Shown here: piece after piece, positions 588 to 27,577 of the stretch | How positions within the stretch are numbered: the stretch's first letter is position 1 | How the letters are laid out: every line of letters begins with the position of its first letter | NCBI RefSeq assembly: GCF_009834565.1 | Contig: NZ_CP019428.1 | Location: forward strand, 6,200,001-6,264,000 | DNA from: Pseudomonas sp. R76 | GTDB lineage: Bacteria; Pseudomonadota; Gammaproteobacteria; Pseudomonadales; Pseudomonadaceae | Length of the DNA: 64,000 nt | Direction of reading: 5' to 3' | Translations under genes and position numbers: made by a program | The notes under the pieces: model-generated | What the model saw: only the letters and a program-made list of their open reading frames with translations | What the model was told of the DNA's origin: nothing | The model's database searches: none

Positions 588-705
588 TCGTACCCACGCT
601 CTGCGTGGGAACGCCGGTGAGGACGCTCCGCGTCCGCTTGTGGCGCAAAACTCAAGCCCCGCACAAGGGACGGGATGCATTCCCACACTGAGCGAGGGAA
701 CGATC
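588..705. repeat. Palindromic repeat, GTTCCCACG family
   Basis: Two inverted arms of the family whose core is CCCACGCTCTGCGTGGG enclose a second, smaller palindrome (GGACGCTCCGCGTCC). The same family recurs at 11311, 17318, 18002, 29806, 30424, 38322 and 55561. It sits just after the exonuclease stop codon. The family also surrounds the RAYT gene at 29886, which is probably its mobilising enzyme. Confidence 0.8.
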
Positions 706-1317: not shown

Positions 1318-2282
1318 CGGTGATCAGCACAAAACCGGTGTCGGCGCGTGTGCTGGATGCCGCGATTGCGTGGCAACTGTCCCTCGACTCCGGCGACGGC
1401 AGTGCCGTGGAACAGGAAGAATTCGCCAAATGGCTGGCCAGCGATAAAGAGCATGCACGCGCCTGGCGCCAGCTGGGCATGCTCGACCAACGTTTCAGCG
1501 TGGCCGCAGGCCCGGCGCGGGCGGCGTTGTTGCAGTCACGCGAAGGCATTCGCCAGCGCGTGCGCAAGCTGGGGCGCGGCGTGGCGAGTATCGCGCTGGT
1601 CTGCGGCCTGGCGTTGTTTGCCGGCGAGCGTTACGTGGCGATCCACTATTGGCTGGCCGACCAACGCACCGCCACCGGCGAGCAGCGCACCCTGAAACTG
1701 GCGGACGGCACGCTGATCAACCTCAACACCCACAGCGCCATCGACGTGCGGTTTGATGAAAAACGCCGGCTGATTGTGCTGCAGGAAGGCGAGATTCTCG
1801 TCGAGACCGGCCATAACGATGCCCGCCCGTTTTATGTCCAAACCCGCGACGGCAGCCTGCGCGCATTGGGCACGCGGTTTATCGTCAAACGCGAAGACGA
1901 CGCCACGCGCCTGAGCGTGCTGCAGTCCGCCGTGGCCGCCCAGCCTGAGGCGCTGCACAAGGAACAGATTTTCAAGCAAGGCCAGCAAGTGCTGATGCGC
2001 AGCGACGGCCTCGGCCCGCTGCTTGCCGTGACACCCGCCGCCGACGCCTGGACGCGCGGCATGCTAGTGGTCGACAACGCCCGCCTGGGCGATGTGGTCG
2101 CGGAACTCAGCCGCTACCGCACCGGCTATCTGGGCGTGGATAAAAACGTCGCCGACCTGCGCATCACCGGCAGCTTCCCGCTGCACGACACCACGCTGGC
2201 GCTGAACGCGCTGTTGCCGACCCTGCCGGTGCAGATTGAGCAGCACACGCCGTGGTGGGTGACCGTCACCGCCAAGCCCTGA
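1314..2282 (+). CDS. FecR-like transmembrane anti-sigma / signal transducer
   Basis: A 322-residue FecR-family protein. The N-terminal cytoplasmic part (AIAWQLSLDSG...EEFAKWLASDKEHARAWRQL) resembles the DUF4880 sigma-binding domain. A single hydrophobic segment follows (~residues 90-106, ASIALVCGLALFAGERYVA), then a periplasmic FecR domain (GEQRTLKLADGTLINLNTHS ... REDDATRLSVLQ). GTG at 1314 is chosen because it overlaps the sigma stop by 4 bp; a longer frame from 1284 would run far into the sigma gene. It holds the sigma factor inactive until the receptor's N-terminal domain signals substrate binding. Confidence 0.88.
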   Translation: MTVISTKPVSARVLDAAIAWQLSLDSGDGSAVEQEEFAKWLASDKEHARAWRQLGMLDQRFSVAAGPARAALLQSREGIRQRVRKLGRGVASIALVCGLALFAGERYVAIHYWLADQRTATGEQRTLKLADGTLINLNTHSAIDVRFDEKRRLIVLQEGEILVETGHNDARPFYVQTRDGSLRALGTRFIVKREDDATRLSVLQSAVAAQPEALHKEQIFKQGQQVLMRSDGLGPLLAVTPAADAWTRGMLVVDNARLGDVVAELSRYRTGYLGVDKNVADLRITGSFPLHDTTLALNALLPTLPVQIEQHTPWWVTVTAKP

Positions 2283-2307
2283 GTTTTGCGCAGTTTGGGC
2301 AATGGCT

Positions 2308-2372
2308 ATCGCAGGCAAGCCAGCTCCCACCTTGAAATGCATTCCCCCTGTGGGAGCTGGCTTGCCTGCGAT
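2308..2372. repeat. REP doublet (inverted pair)
   Basis: Two oppositely oriented copies of the REP core ATCGCAGGCAAGCCAGCTC, 20 bp apart, lie between the anti-sigma and receptor genes. The transcript can fold into a long hairpin, which may separate regulator expression from receptor expression. Confidence 0.9.
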
Positions 2373-2480
2373 GGGGCCCTCAAGACCATCCTGAAAAATA
2401 TTTCCACCCAGCCCTATCACTTTTTGAATCTCGCTCGGCACATAGGCAATTGCGAATTACTTCCATTCAGGAGCCGCCCT

Positions 2481-4910
2481 ATGTCCCGCACGCTAGACAC
2501 CTTGTTGCGCCCCAGCCTGTTAGCCGTGGCCATTGCCCTCAGCGCCCCGCTGGCCAGCACCACGCTGATCGCCGCTGAACAGGCTTCCAGCGTGCGCGCC
2601 TACAACCTGCCGGCGGCGCCGTTGGCCAGCACCCTGAACCAGATCGCCAGCCAGGCCGGCCTTGCGCTGACGCTGAATCCTTCGCTGGCAGCGGGCAAGA
2701 CCTCGGCACCGGTCAACGGCCAGTTCGATGCACAGGGCGCACTGCGCGAGGCGTTGCGTGGGACCGGGTTGCAGTTGGAGCAGAGCAGCGCCGGGACGTT
2801 TACGTTGGTGGCGATTCCGGAGGGGGTTGTGGCGTTGCCGGAGACGAGCATCATTGCTCAGGGCAACACCGAAAGTGCCTGGGGCCCGGTGACAGGCTAC
2901 TTGGCAACGCGCACCGCCGCCGGCACCAAGACCGACACCGCCCTGGTCGAAGCACCGCGTTCGATCTCCGTCGCCACCCGGCAGCAGATGCAGGATCGCA
3001 ACGTCCAGAACCTCGATGACGCGGTCAAATACATGCCCGGCATCGTCTCTTCCAGCTATGGCAGCGACACCCGCTACGACTGGATGCGCGTGCGCGGTTT
3101 TGAACCCACGCAATTCCTCGACGGCCTGCCATTGCCGCGCGGTGTGTACGCCAACCCGAAAGCCGAAACCTGGAACCTTGATCGCCTGGCCCTGCTGCGT
3201 GGCCCGGCCTCGTCGATCTACGGCCAAACGCCACCGGGCGGCCTGTTGGACATGGTCAGCCGCCGCCCCAGTGCTGAGTCGAGCAATGCCGTCCAAGTGC
3301 AATACGGCAGTGACAACTACCGCCAGATCAACTTTGCCAGCACCGGCAAAATCGATGATGAAGGCCAGTTCCTGTATGGCCTCAGCGGTGTAGTGCGCGA
3401 CGCCGGCACCCAGGTCGACCACATCGACAACAAGCGCTACAACATTGCGCCGAGCCTGACGTGGAATATCGACACCGATACCAAGCTGACCTTCCTGTCG
3501 CAGTTCACTCGGGACGATACCGGTGCCACCAGCCAGTTTTTGCCAATTGTGGGCACCAAAATCGATTCTCCGTTGGGTAAAGTCTCCCATCATAAGAATC
3601 TGGGCGACCCGGATTACGAATTCTACGACCGCACCTACTACGCATTGGGCTATGCGTTCGAGCACCGCTTCAACGATACCTGGCAGTTCAAGCAGAACCT
3701 GCGTTACACCAAATCGGAGCTTTCATTCCAACAACTGACCGTGGGTGCCTTTGCCTATTATCCAGTAGACGCTACGGGCAACATCGACCGCACCTCGACC
3801 AACGTTGATGAGAACATCGGCCAATTCGCGGTCGACAACAACTTCCAGGCCGACTTCGCAACCGGTGATGTCACCCATACCCTTCTGTTGGGCCTGGACC
3901 ACCAGCGCACCGACACTTCTTACCTGTCGATATACGGTAGCGCCGGGCGCATCAACATCTTCAACCCCGTCAACACTGCACCGGTAGTGCGCCCCCCACG
4001 CACCGATGCGTACTACGACTACAACCAGAAAACCGTACAAACCGGCCTCTATGCACAAGACCAGATGGCTTTGGATAAGTGGCGCCTGACGTTGGGTGGG
4101 CGTGAAGACTGGGTGCATCAAGGCACCACCTACTTCAACAAAAACGATGCGACCAATACTGATCGCAGCAAGAACTTCAGTGGCAACGCGGCATTGAGCT
4201 ACGTGTTTGACTCGGGCTTTGTGCCGTACTTGTCCTACGCGGAATCTTTCCAGCCAGCAAGCAACGCCAGCGTAGACCCACTCAAGTCCTATAAGCCCAC
4301 CGAAGGCAAGCAATGGGAACTGGGGATCAAGTACCAGCCGCCTGGTTCCAACACTTTGCTGAGTGCGGCGATATACGATCTGACGCAGAAAAACGTATTG
4401 GTTACGAGCACCGGCGCAGGTGGCCAATCAGTCACCGACCAAACCGGGGAAGTGAAAGTCAAAGGCCTGGAACTGGAAGCCGTTTCTGACGTGACCGAGA
4501 ATCTCAAGGTCATCGCTGCTTATACCCTGGCCAAATCCGAAGTACAAAAAGGCGAATTCAAAGGCAACCGCCTGCAACTGATGCCCGAGCAGCAAGCCTC
4601 CCTGTGGACCGACTACACCTGGCACAACGGCGTACTCGATGGTTTCGGCATCGGCTTTGGCGCCCGCTACACCGGCAACACTTATGGCGACCAAGCCAAC
4701 ACTTGGCTGGGTAAGGCAAATGCCTACACGGTGTTCGACGGTGCCGTGCATTACGACCTTGGCCGCCTCGACAACAGCCTCAAAGGTGCCTCGGTGAAAC
4801 TCAACGCCACTAACCTGTTCAACAAGGACTACATTTCCACCTGCGATGGCTCCTACTGCTACTTCGGCGACCAACGCAGCGTCGTCGCCAGCGCCACCTA
4901 CCAGTGGTAA
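2481..4910 (+). CDS. TonB-dependent siderophore receptor with signalling (STN) domain
   Basis: An 809-residue outer-membrane receptor. It starts at ATG 2481 behind CAGGAG; the longer open frame reads through the REP and is rejected. It has a signal peptide (~1-32, ending LIAAEQ) and an STN transducer domain (~38-95, YNLPAAPLASTLNQIASQAGLAL) of the kind that talks to FecR proteins. The plug domain (~140-250, EAPRSISVATRQQM ... VRGFEPTQFLDG) and a 22-strand-type barrel follow, ending in an aromatic residue (TYQW). The motif LLRGPASSIYGQTPPGG is typical of ferric-siderophore receptors. The STN domain plus the adjacent sigma/anti-sigma genes indicate cell-surface signalling. The siderophore cannot be read from sequence; uptake of a foreign hydroxamate or ferrioxamine-type compound is plausible. 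Confidence 0.92.
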   Translation: MSRTLDTLLRPSLLAVAIALSAPLASTTLIAAEQASSVRAYNLPAAPLASTLNQIASQAGLALTLNPSLAAGKTSAPVNGQFDAQGALREALRGTGLQLEQSSAGTFTLVAIPEGVVALPETSIIAQGNTESAWGPVTGYLATRTAAGTKTDTALVEAPRSISVATRQQMQDRNVQNLDDAVKYMPGIVSSSYGSDTRYDWMRVRGFEPTQFLDGLPLPRGVYANPKAETWNLDRLALLRGPASSIYGQTPPGGLLDMVSRRPSAESSNAVQVQYGSDNYRQINFASTGKIDDEGQFLYGLSGVVRDAGTQVDHIDNKRYNIAPSLTWNIDTDTKLTFLSQFTRDDTGATSQFLPIVGTKIDSPLGKVSHHKNLGDPDYEFYDRTYYALGYAFEHRFNDTWQFKQNLRYTKSELSFQQLTVGAFAYYPVDATGNIDRTSTNVDENIGQFAVDNNFQADFATGDVTHTLLLGLDHQRTDTSYLSIYGSAGRINIFNPVNTAPVVRPPRTDAYYDYNQKTVQTGLYAQDQMALDKWRLTLGGREDWVHQGTTYFNKNDATNTDRSKNFSGNAALSYVFDSGFVPYLSYAESFQPASNASVDPLKSYKPTEGKQWELGIKYQPPGSNTLLSAAIYDLTQKNVLVTSTGAGGQSVTDQTGEVKVKGLELEAVSDVTENLKVIAAYTLAKSEVQKGEFKGNRLQLMPEQQASLWTDYTWHNGVLDGFGIGFGARYTGNTYGDQANTWLGKANAYTVFDGAVHYDLGRLDNSLKGASVKLNATNLFNKDYISTCDGSYCYFGDQRSVVASATYQW

Positions 4911-24304: not shown

Positions 24305-26500
24305 ATGGCGCTACTTAACCAAGTTATTGATATCTGCAAACGTCTGGCTCCCCATGGCTGGCGAAACCTGTTGCTTGGCCATGGTCTCGACATCCTCGCG
24401 CCCAACCTTGACGCCGAACTGGGTAAACCGCTGACCCCAAACCGGACACTTAGCGGTTTTAAAGACTTTGCCTTGACCGGAACGCGCGGTATTGAACCTG
24501 GCAAACCCGCACACAGCCTGCTGTATCACGCTCTGGCCAACGCCAATGTGACCACCGACGCCAGCGGCAACCCACTGCAGGCCTATCCCACGCCGGCAGA
24601 ACTTGAAACCGTCCTCAACTACGTTTACGGCCGCCAGCCGCCCAGCCTTGCGCAATTGCAGGCACGTGCGAATGGGCACCCGATGGCGGTGGTGGTGTTC
24701 GCGGTCGAGTACCGCCCGGCACCGGACACGGTGCACAAGGTCCACGCCGATTTGTGTTTTTCGCGCACCGGCATCGCGCGGGTGGGCACAAAGGCCCCGT
24801 TGTACGACGCGCCGACCCGGGGTTTCCTGCCGTTTGTAGAAGGGGAAGACCACGCCATTCGAGTGCTGCCTGCGCGCTACAGCGCCTACATCGCGGTCCA
24901 GCTCAAAGGCGACCGTGCCAATTTCGGCCCGATGCGCTTTGGCGCAGCAGATGCAGCCGGTGATTTCTGGGTGCCGCTGCATAAACTGTTCAATGGCAGT
25001 GAGTGTGTGGCTGGCATGACCCTTGATCTCAATCTGCACGCACAGCATAAAAACGAAAAGTTACGCCGCATACACTTGGAGCTGGCACCCGATTCCGGCT
25101 GGGGTGAACCCCATATTAGCCAACCGCCCTTCATCACCACCGAAGGCCTCGCGGACTGGCTGCCTGAGCCAGCGTATGGCCCAGGATTAATGGCCGCCAC
25201 GCCCCATGAACATCTGGCTGAAGCCGCCCGATACCTGGGTAAACCGTTGACGTTCAACGTTCCTGAAGACGCTAGCCTCCTGGCTTCCAGCCTGGCACTG
25301 AACGGAAATGCGCCGGAGTTCGTGCATATTCGCCATAAAGTCGATGAGGCGGGCAACGTCATCAATCTCAATCGCCGGGCCGGCATGTTTGATGAGTTGC
25401 AGAAGGGCAATTACAAGGCCCTGCACTACGTGGACTTTACCGCCGATGGTCGAATCCAGGCTCAGTGCGCAGCGCTGGACAACGCCATTCCACAGCGCGT
25501 GGCCGCGTATTCATTGGTTTGCGCACCGGACTTTTATCCCCTGTGCAAGCAGCGCCACCTGATGGAGTGGCTCGAAACCCTGGACCTGCTTACTCAGCTC
25601 ACGATGTTCCGCGTGCAACCGCGGTGCCTGTCCGACACTCGTATGCCCGCCAATATCCAGTCTTTTCCCGAGTCCTTTTCCAGTACGGACGTCAGCATTA
25701 CTGCCATCGTTGCCCAATTTAATACTTCGCCTGCCATGGCCACCCCTCAGCCGAGCGTCCCGTCTGCAAGGTGCGCCTCGTGCCTTCCCGATGCAGGTTC
25801 AGGGGTGTTCGCACCCGGCTGGGATATTGGCACCGGTTTTTACCCAGAGGATTCGAGCAGCATTGAACACCTGGCGGCTTTCAGGCTGGGTAGCCCATTT
25901 CCCGAAGATGCGAAGCTGTGTGCAGCCCTGAGTTCCTTTTGGCCCGCCGTTGCACCCGACTCAGCGCAATCCTATGAGCCGAATGCCGGCGCCGGTCCGA
26001 GCATCAAACCGATGCTGGACCAAGAGATCGGCAAAAATGCCGGGTTCCCCTGGGACGGTGTACCCGCCGCAAAAAAATATATCGCCAATAGCGCCACCCA
26101 TAGGGCCTACGAGACTTTCCGCTACACCGACTATGTGGAAAACGCGCTCAACGGCAAGTTCGCGCTGACGCTGACGGGCAAAGTCGACTCGCAGGAATAT
26201 CAACGTCGTGTCGATGCATGGCGCCGAGTCAGGCTGTCATTGGGCGCCAACGCCAGGGATTGGTTTATCGACTCGTTCAACACTGCAACACCGGACGAGT
26301 CCCACATAATCACTCTCAACACCAACGTTACCGTTACGCCGAATGACGTGGGTTATCGCTTTGAACTGTTTCGCTATGAACGGGTGACATCGCCCGCGTT
26401 CGACCAAGTGCGTATCAAACTCACGGAAACGTTTACTTACCTGGTATGGCCGCAGGTTGTCTTGCGTCAGCAGGGCATCAAGCCTTGGCAGCGCGTTTAG
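24305..26500 (+). CDS. Divergent LodA-like (cysteine tryptophylquinone) protein, putative
   Basis: A 731-residue protein with no obvious signal peptide, starting MALLNQVIDICKRLAPHGWR (ATG 24305 behind GAGG). I do not recognise the first ~350 residues, except the short GIARVG string that also opens LodA proteins. The last third looks LodA-like: a PGWDIG segment (W506), then FPEDAKLC with D535 exactly four residues before C539, followed by FWPAVAPD (W546). In LodA (L-lysine 6-oxidase) an Asp four residues before the CTQ cysteine is conserved and the cysteine is followed by a WWP-x2-RPD block. W583 (FPWDGV) is the best-placed quinone-tryptophan candidate. C490/C493 form a CxxC. The next gene encodes a LodB-like flavoprotein, the known maturase type for this cofactor, which supports the call. 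The substrate is unknown and the assignment is an inference. Confidence 0.5.
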   Translation: MALLNQVIDICKRLAPHGWRNLLLGHGLDILAPNLDAELGKPLTPNRTLSGFKDFALTGTRGIEPGKPAHSLLYHALANANVTTDASGNPLQAYPTPAELETVLNYVYGRQPPSLAQLQARANGHPMAVVVFAVEYRPAPDTVHKVHADLCFSRTGIARVGTKAPLYDAPTRGFLPFVEGEDHAIRVLPARYSAYIAVQLKGDRANFGPMRFGAADAAGDFWVPLHKLFNGSECVAGMTLDLNLHAQHKNEKLRRIHLELAPDSGWGEPHISQPPFITTEGLADWLPEPAYGPGLMAATPHEHLAEAARYLGKPLTFNVPEDASLLASSLALNGNAPEFVHIRHKVDEAGNVINLNRRAGMFDELQKGNYKALHYVDFTADGRIQAQCAALDNAIPQRVAAYSLVCAPDFYPLCKQRHLMEWLETLDLLTQLTMFRVQPRCLSDTRMPANIQSFPESFSSTDVSITAIVAQFNTSPAMATPQPSVPSARCASCLPDAGSGVFAPGWDIGTGFYPEDSSSIEHLAAFRLGSPFPEDAKLCAALSSFWPAVAPDSAQSYEPNAGAGPSIKPMLDQEIGKNAGFPWDGVPAAKKYIANSATHRAYETFRYTDYVENALNGKFALTLTGKVDSQEYQRRVDAWRRVRLSLGANARDWFIDSFNTATPDESHIITLNTNVTVTPNDVGYRFELFRYERVTSPAFDQVRIKLTETFTYLVWPQVVLRQQGIKPWQRV

Positions 26501-26515
26501 AACAGGCCAGGCCCC

Positions 26516-27577
26516 ATGAAGCACTACGACGTCATCATCCTGGGGGCTGGCGCGGCCGGATGTGCGGCGGCCATTTCGTGCGCTCAACACGGCCTGAAAG
26601 TAGCCGTTATCGAGCGCCTGCTGTTTCCACGCGCACGCCCGGGCGAAACCTTGCATCCGGGCATAGAGCCTTTGCTTGCGCAACTGGGCGTGGCTGAACA
26701 CATTCGCGGCGATGCATTCATCCGTCCTGCGGGGACCTGGGTGCAGTGGGATCAAGAGCGACGCTTTGTTCCATTTGGCGAAGATAAAGACGGGCCCTGG
26801 CGAGGGTTTCAAATTCCCAGGGCGACGCTCGATGGGTTGCTGTTGGATCAAGCCATCGCATCCGGCGTGCATGCCCTGCAACCCTGCCAGGCAAAACAGG
26901 TGTTAGTGGAAAAGGGCCGCGTCATCGGCATTCAGACCCAGACAGAGAAGGTGTATTGCAGGCACTTGGTTGATGCGAGTGGCGCGCACGGTTGGCTGGC
27001 TCGCCAACTGGGGCTTACAGCGCGTCACTACTCACCGCCGTTAACCGCCGTGTATGGCTACAAGCGAGGCTGGGTGGAAGAAACGGCACTTGGTATCTTC
27101 GCGGATCAATCGGGTTGGTATTGGACAGCTCACATCGGCCAGGGGCTTTATCACTGGACACGACTGCGTTTTGCCCAAGACAAGCAGCCCAAGGCGTCAG
27201 CGGTGCCGGCCTGCCTGGAACAACTGGCCTGTGAGGGCGCCATCCAGGGTGCCGATGTCACCTGGAGACGCTGTGTTCAAGCGGCCGGCAACGGCTATTT
27301 CATCATCGGCGACGCCGCCAGTGTGTTGGACCCAGGCGCCTCTCACGGCGTACTCAAGGCACTGATGTCGGGCATGATGGCTGCACGCTGTATCGCCGAT
27401 GAAACGGCCAGCCCCGCGCATAGACGCGAAATCTCGCGGCACTATTGCCAATGGTTGCGGGATTGGTTCGAGCACGATGTGCAAAAAATGCGCGCGTTCT
27501 ACGCCGCTCATCCGTTTGCTCCCGATTGGCTCAACACGACGTCAGCCAATGGCCTTGCGGACCACCAACAAGAGTAA
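26516..27577 (+). CDS. LodB-like FAD-dependent oxidoreductase (tryptophan-halogenase superfamily)
   Basis: A 353-residue flavoprotein with an N-terminal dinucleotide fold (DVIILGAGAAGCAAAISCAQHGLKVAVIE in parts), PRARPGETLHPGIEPLL, and the C-terminal FAD motif GDAASVLDPGASHGVLKALMSGMMAA. This last block, DP-x-SHGVLKALMSG, is characteristic of LodB/GoxB proteins, which hydroxylate the tryptophan during CTQ formation on LodA/GoxA partners. The gene starts 15 bp after the LodA-like stop, so the two are co-transcribed. It overlaps the convergent TraX gene tail-to-tail by 36 bp. Confidence 0.72.
   Translation: MKHYDVIILGAGAAGCAAAISCAQHGLKVAVIERLLFPRARPGETLHPGIEPLLAQLGVAEHIRGDAFIRPAGTWVQWDQERRFVPFGEDKDGPWRGFQIPRATLDGLLLDQAIASGVHALQPCQAKQVLVEKGRVIGIQTQTEKVYCRHLVDASGAHGWLARQLGLTARHYSPPLTAVYGYKRGWVEETALGIFADQSGWYWTAHIGQGLYHWTRLRFAQDKQPKASAVPACLEQLACEGAIQGADVTWRRCVQAAGNGYFIIGDAASVLDPGASHGVLKALMSGMMAARCIADETASPAHRREISRHYCQWLRDWFEHDVQKMRAFYAAHPFAPDWLNTTSANGLADHQQE

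What the first reader, a model, noticed from the sequence alone, without database searches (positions are those of the whole stretch)
24305..27577. A divergent LodA/LodB-like pair: candidate new CTQ quinoprotein
Directly seen: a 731-residue protein and, 15 bp later, a flavoprotein with GDAASVLDPGASHGVLKALMSG, which I know from LodB/GoxB maturases of CTQ proteins. The first protein has D535-x3-C539, the spacing of the conserved Asp and CTQ cysteine in LodA, and a following FWPAVAPD block like LodA's WWP-x2-RPD. Its N-terminal half is not recognisable as LodA, so the substrate could be new. A TraX-family membrane protein is tail-to-tail with it. The island is inserted between glyA-sox and the threonine aldolase, next to glycine metabolism (compare GoxA, a glycine oxidase).
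Basis: partly seen in the sequence, partly recalled or inferred. Interest (0 to 1): 0.8.

Follow-up and report, generated by a model that had tools for sequence, protein, structure and literature searches.

The report
Undescribed widespread family of CTQ quinoproteins
Two neighbouring bacterial genes look like an enzyme that builds a quinone cofactor from two of its own amino acids and the flavoprotein that helps build it; the pair belongs to a large, unannotated family found in several bacterial phyla, and its substrate is unknown.

The parts
24305..26500 (+). Putative CTQ quinoprotein oxidase, 731 aa plus stop
   Evidence: ORF; 1109 relatives among the 8000 candidates scored; LodA/GoxA fold
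24305..24682 (+). Residues 1-126: conserved N-terminal extension outside the LodA/GoxA alignments, helix-rich
   Evidence: Structure alignments start at model residue 127/128; conserved in A4; secondary structure
24683..26212 (+). Residues 127-636: LodA/GoxA-like core
   Evidence: VIA-align ranges 128-635/636 against LodA and 127/128-631..685 against GoxA
25808..25825 (+). F502-A503-P504-G505-W506-D507 block; A503 sits where LodA has C448 and P. luteoviolacea GoxA has H583
   Evidence: Alignment of FAPGWD with LodA-like F-x-PG-I-E; LodA and GoxA sequences; numbering counted by me
25895..25921 (+). PFPEDAKLC, residues 531-539: D535-x3-C539, predicted CTQ cysteine C539
   Evidence: 80 of 81 rows, one gapped
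25937..25960 (+). FWPAVAPD, residues 545-552: W546 (25940-25942) is the predicted CTQ tryptophan
   Evidence: C-to-W spacing 7 in 197 of 201 sequences, 4 not matched by the pattern; corresponds to LodA W581 in YWWP
26516..27577 (+). FAD-dependent putative CTQ maturase, 353 aa plus stop
   Evidence: ORF; Pfam Trp_halogenase and FAD-binding families; adjacent in 78 of 80 loci
27308..27373 (+). GDAASVLDPGASHGVLKALMSG, GD motif of the FAD protein
   Evidence: Sequence; alignment A3

Best explanation
The pair is an oxidase and its dedicated maturase. The 731-residue protein folds like LodA/GoxA and carries unmodified C539 and W546 when translated. The flavoprotein next door uses FAD and O2 to oxygenate W546, and C539 becomes linked to it, giving cysteine tryptophylquinone (CTQ), with D535 beside the cofactor. 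The mature enzyme forms a Schiff base between the quinone and a primary amine or amino acid, releases the aldehyde or keto acid, and is reoxidised by O2 to give ammonia and hydrogen peroxide. Shown here: fold similarity in a predicted model, conserved D/C/W triad in the right motif, conserved gene pair. Inferred: CTQ formation, the maturase role, oxidase rather than dehydrogenase (no recurrent third gene), amine class of substrate. The substrate probably differs from lysine and glycine, because the residue that is C448 in LodA and H583 in GoxA is A503 here.
Confidence: 0.82

Rival explanations
1. CTQ forms, but between C539 and W583 rather than W546.
For: W583 is 80 of 81 in the alignment, one row gapped; hhalign places it on a conserved tryptophan of LodA-like proteins and on the last tryptophan of QHNDH gamma.
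Against: In LodA and QHNDH gamma the CTQ tryptophan is the second W of the WWP motif, and in GoxA, by my alignment, the second W of SWWA; W546 aligns with it. The tryptophan that W583 aligns with is another one in LodA (QMVEHW) and is Phe in two members that carry LodA_N, L170 and L171.
Confidence: 0.06
2. The protein has the LodA fold but no CTQ; the flavoprotein installs another modification (for example hydroxytryptophan or a halogenated residue) or acts on a small molecule.
For: The flavoprotein's best Pfam hit is tryptophan halogenase, and it groups with FAD proteins of aryl-polyene-like clusters rather than with LodB-like or QhpG rows.
Against: The D, C and W of the CTQ site are all conserved; the pairing persists in 78 of 80 loci.
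Confidence: 0.1
3. It is a glycine oxidase like GoxA, serving the adjacent sarcosine/glycine genes.
For: The pair lies between glyA and TraX-ltaA in the window and in L034-L038; GoxA entries are the best structural matches.
Confidence: 0.08

Closest known systems
GoxA, glycine oxidase of Pseudoalteromonas luteoviolacea (PDB 6byw and others)
   Different: 15-16 % identity in the structural alignments; C-to-W distance 15 (my alignment) against 7; H583 replaced by A503; N-terminal extension of 126 residues; no match to PF17990 or PF18417.
LodA, L-lysine epsilon-oxidase of Marinomonas mediterranea (PDB 2ymw, 3weu)
   Same: Foldseek's first hit; D512-x3-C516 and WW581P correspond to D535, C539, W546.
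   Different: C-to-W distance 65 against 7; C448 replaced by A503; profile similarity very weak; partner flavoprotein in another clade than the LodB-like proteins sampled.
QHNDH gamma subunit (QhpC)
   Same: D33-x3-C37 and W43 in WWP with distance 6; PGWE block like PGWD; its NCBIfam model finds one family member at E 5.6e-4, 22 bits, below cut-off.
   Different: Small subunit of a haem dehydrogenase with three further thioether crosslinks (PMC7876137 passages); the family consensus has no cysteine at the places that align with gamma C7, C27 and C41 (gamma numbering mine).

Membership tests
LodA/GoxA family as defined by Pfam (PF17990 LodA_N, PF18417 LodA_C) | Match to LodA_N or LodA_C profile | tested here: not met
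   No match in any of 32 members (HMMER's filters drop most matches above about 0.1)
LodA/GoxA family as defined by Pfam (PF17990 LodA_N, PF18417 LodA_C) | LodA/GoxA fold | tested here: met
LodA/GoxA family as defined by Pfam (PF17990 LodA_N, PF18417 LodA_C) | Cys and Trp aligned with C516 and W581, and the Asp before the Cys | tested here: met
   80 of 81 rows, one gapped; LodA W581 located in WWP
LodA/GoxA family as defined by Pfam (PF17990 LodA_N, PF18417 LodA_C) | Adjacent flavoprotein gene | tested here: met
   78 of 80 named loci
LodA/GoxA family as defined by Pfam (PF17990 LodA_N, PF18417 LodA_C) | CTQ present and amino-acid oxidase activity | not testable with these tools
   Needs protein chemistry
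LodB/GoxB maturases | NCBIfam LodB (cut-off 400 bits) or GoxB (400 bits) | tested here: not met
   93 and 81 bits for the window's flavoprotein
LodB/GoxB maturases | Groups with LodB-like proteins in a tree | tested here: not met
   20 partner flavoproteins form one clade, 100/96, apart from 10 LodB-like rows, eight of which were found by the GoxB model below its cut-off
QhpG | NCBIfam QhpG cut-off 240 bits | tested here: not met
   120 bits for the window's flavoprotein; all 17 partners scanned match at E up to 0.001 but so do other FAD proteins
QHNDH gamma subunit | NF037958 cut-off 50 bits | tested here: not met
   Best family member seen 22 bits, E 5.6e-4; 2 of 32 members of A1 at best E 0.071
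QHNDH gamma subunit | Accompanying qhp genes (haem subunit, radical-SAM QhpD) | tested here: inconclusive
   No third gene recurs widely around 80 loci; QhpD was not searched for by name

The most novel reading that the evidence does not exclude
A third branch of CTQ quinoproteins, beside LodA/GoxA and QHNDH: a single-chain enzyme with its own maturase lineage, near-constant C-x6-W spacing like QHNDH gamma, a new N-terminal domain and an unknown substrate, spread over nine or more bacterial phyla. It may show how the large oxidases and the small QHNDH gamma subunit are related.
Probability: 0.5. Interest if true: 0.75.

Novelty: new variant of a known kind. Interest (0 to 1): 0.62.

Why it matters
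Few protein-derived quinone enzymes are characterised (recalled). This would add a family with over a thousand members (clustered at 90 % identity) that Pfam and NCBIfam do not see, in cyanobacteria, Bacillus, Nitrospira, Planctomycetes and Pseudomonas, called hypothetical or uncharacterised where a name was listed. It gives a directly testable site (C539-W546), a partner flavoprotein outside the sampled LodB and QhpG groups, and a likely new oxidase specificity, and it bears on how CTQ proteins and their maturases evolved.

Tried and rejected
W583 as the CTQ tryptophan: I first took LodA W581 to be the conserved W of the later W-x2-LGF block and leaned to W583; reading LodA itself showed W581 to be the second W of WWP, and two LodA_N-positive members have Phe in the later position, so I dropped it.

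C-to-W spacing as a way to tell the two tryptophans apart: not decisive, since LodA-like proteins also mostly have a fixed distance from C to WWP (5 in 117 of 128).

QhpG score as evidence that the partner is a maturase: rejected, because FAD proteins of aryl-polyene-like clusters score 123-169 bits against 118-120 for this one.

Neighbour genes as a substrate hint: besides the flavoprotein (68 loci in this cruder clustering), the most frequent cluster is in 15 of 80 loci, a LysR-type regulator by my reading of the sequence. Three-gene island with TraX: rejected. Anti-phage role: no PADLOC match. Foldseek without re-alignment gave nothing under E 1e-3 for either model.

In one search I translated glyA one base out of frame; the glyA identities printed there mean nothing, its positions stand.

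Literature: searches listed no paper that describes this family, judged from titles and abstract starts. PMC4417212: abstract, passages and section 7 seen; it surveyed LodA-like genes by BLASTP and reports a single Firmicutes genome, so it probably did not include this family's Bacillus and Paenibacillus members (my inference). PMC7876137: passages seen.

Full report
What is there. ORF 24305-26497 encodes 731 residues and ORF 26516-27577 encodes 353, 15 bp apart. The first protein has no Pfam match over a cut-off (best 0.28), no NCBIfam match and no PDB match by sequence or profile. The second is an FAD protein of the tryptophan-halogenase/geranylgeranyl-reductase type. The minus-strand gene beyond it is TraX (PF05857).

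Family. A search of 5.8 billion proteins gave 1109 relatives at E up to 1e-3 among the 8000 candidates scored; the 120 listed carry no precomputed Pfam domain and, where a name is given, are hypothetical or uncharacterised proteins. In the genus, 27 of 398 genomes, the window's own included, have a match. A genome-contig scan gave 124 relatives, of which the best 80 were returned. By my reading of their titles: 24 Pseudomonas, 9 other Pseudomonadota, 25 Cyanobacteria, 5 Actinomycetota, 5 Nitrospirota, 3 Bacillota, 3 Planctomycetota, 2 Acidobacteriota, 1 Verrucomicrobiota, 1 Bacteroidota, 1 archaeal MAG (which may be mis-binned) and 1 unassigned bacterium. The scan used two peptide patterns from the family, so it favours members that keep them.

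Gene pair. A profile of the flavoprotein, at over 60 bits, finds it directly downstream on the same strand in 78 of the 80 loci; in L075 and L106 only part is visible, at the end of the stretch. L086 and L110 have none next to the oxidase. No other gene recurs widely: the next most frequent neighbour cluster is in 15 of 80 loci.

Invariant residues. In the alignment of the window protein with the 80 loci, D535, C539, W506, W546 and W583 are each 80 of 81, the remaining row being gapped there; that row is probably L062, whose gene is split into two frames. D535 lies in one of the two scan patterns; the cysteine and tryptophans do not. In 32 members, 31 of them from the protein search, and in a set of 55, D535, C539, W546 and W583 are invariant. 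The sets overlap. C539 to W546 is 7 residues in 197 of 201 sequences (window, 80 loci, 120 proteins, overlapping); four were not matched by the pattern.

Sequence links. Profile comparison with a LodA-like alignment is weak: E 0.047 over 28 columns, and E 0.13 for the core against whole LodA-like proteins. Restricted to the active-site region it is E 0.013 against LodA-like proteins and 4.2e-4 against QHNDH gamma, while LodA-like against gamma is 1.6e-6; the alignments place FAPGWD on F-x-PG-IE, PFPEDAKLC on PWQADF-x2-C, and FWPAVAPD on WWPAQRP. I chose these regions, and each is a single comparison. The curated gamma model finds one family member at E 5.6e-4 (22 bits, below its cut-off). IARVG, D-x3-DG and AYSLV-x-APDF-x-P occur in the same order as LodA's IAR-x-G, DDVSDG and AWVVVA-x-P-x-YAP. 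So the N-terminal half is LodA-like too, after a 126-residue extension.

Which tryptophan. LodA's CTQ is C516-W581 (PMC4417212, passages and section 7). In the LodA chain, D512-FFN-C516 and Y579-W580-W581-P582 are read directly. In GoxA, D678 and C682 are followed by W696-W697-A; that W697 is the cofactor residue is my alignment. In QHNDH gamma the CTQ is Cys37-Trp43 (PMC7876137 passages), in D33-LYG-C37-SDPC-W42-W43-P (numbering mine). The CTQ tryptophan is thus the second aromatic of one motif, with the distance to the cysteine varying (65, 15, 6). In the window protein it is W546 (distance 7). W583 aligns with a later LodA tryptophan that is not the cofactor and is Phe in two LodA_N-positive members.

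Pocket residue. The residue before PG is C448 in LodA and H583 in GoxA (counted; an H583C GoxA structure is listed). Here it is A503, at 90 % or more in the 32-member alignment but below 90 % in the more diverse 55. That C448 and H583 shape specificity is recalled, not tested. It suggests a substrate other than lysine or glycine.

Maturase. All 17 partners scanned match the QhpG, LodB and GoxB models; for the window's own the bits are 120, 93 and 81, all below cut-off. In a 40-row tree 20 partners form one clade (100/96), apart from 10 LodB-like rows and 4 QhpG rows and next to 3 FAD proteins of aryl-polyene-like clusters (98/93). The tool flags long branches, and sampling is thin, so the sister group is unsure. 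The maturase role rests on the pairing, not on its sequence class.

Location. In the window and in L034-L038 the order is soxA-soxB-glyA / pair / TraX / ltaA. Twelve further Pseudomonas regions read at this site have no pair there: in six glyA, TraX and ltaA are contiguous with about 155-325 bp between glyA and TraX; in four glyA is next to ltaA with no TraX found; in two (L132, L133) about 2-3.5 kb of other DNA lies between glyA and TraX. A thirteenth region (L136) is a pair elsewhere in its genome. Gene names sox, glyA, ltaA are my reading. The pair was thus probably inserted beside TraX in one sublineage.

Other CTQ systems. The window's genome has no match to PF18417, PF17990 or NF037958 and one copy of this oxidase.

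Verdict. A divergent family, very probably of CTQ quinoproteins, with its own flavoprotein, close in fold to LodA/GoxA but outside the families as now defined. Confidence 0.82 that it makes CTQ from C539 and W546 and works as an oxidase of this type.

Noticed in passing
L026 (G226), 1471-3081; protein P0125: An open frame joins the oxidase up to residue 666 directly to the flavoprotein from residue 4, lacking the oxidase C-terminus; a near-identical 550-aa metagenome protein has 84 member sequences. In G226 the frame does not contain the oxidase N-terminal part, so it may be decay rather than a working fusion.
   Followed up: partly
L004/L006 (G034), L024 (G379): Broken copies of the oxidase gene in two Pseudomonas genomes, split into separate frames, one with an in-frame stop.
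   Followed up: no
L007 and L029 (G120): One genome carries two full-length oxidase copies about 4 kb apart (72 and 61 % identical to the window protein); in the 1.5 kb held after the second only a short flavoprotein piece is found.
   Followed up: partly
L086 and L110: Oxidase genes with no flavoprotein next to them (Pseudomonas antarctica and an Isosphaeraceae MAG).
   Followed up: partly
L159 6292-7536, L160 5820-7064, L161 5098-6453: FAD proteins in what read like aryl-polyene-type clusters score as high on NCBIfam QhpG as the window's flavoprotein, so that model is not specific below its cut-off.
   Followed up: yes
L039 7902-9197 and corresponding places in L040, L041, L042, L051: In five cyanobacteria the pair lies near genes that read like methionine-salvage enzymes (names by my reading).
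   Followed up: no
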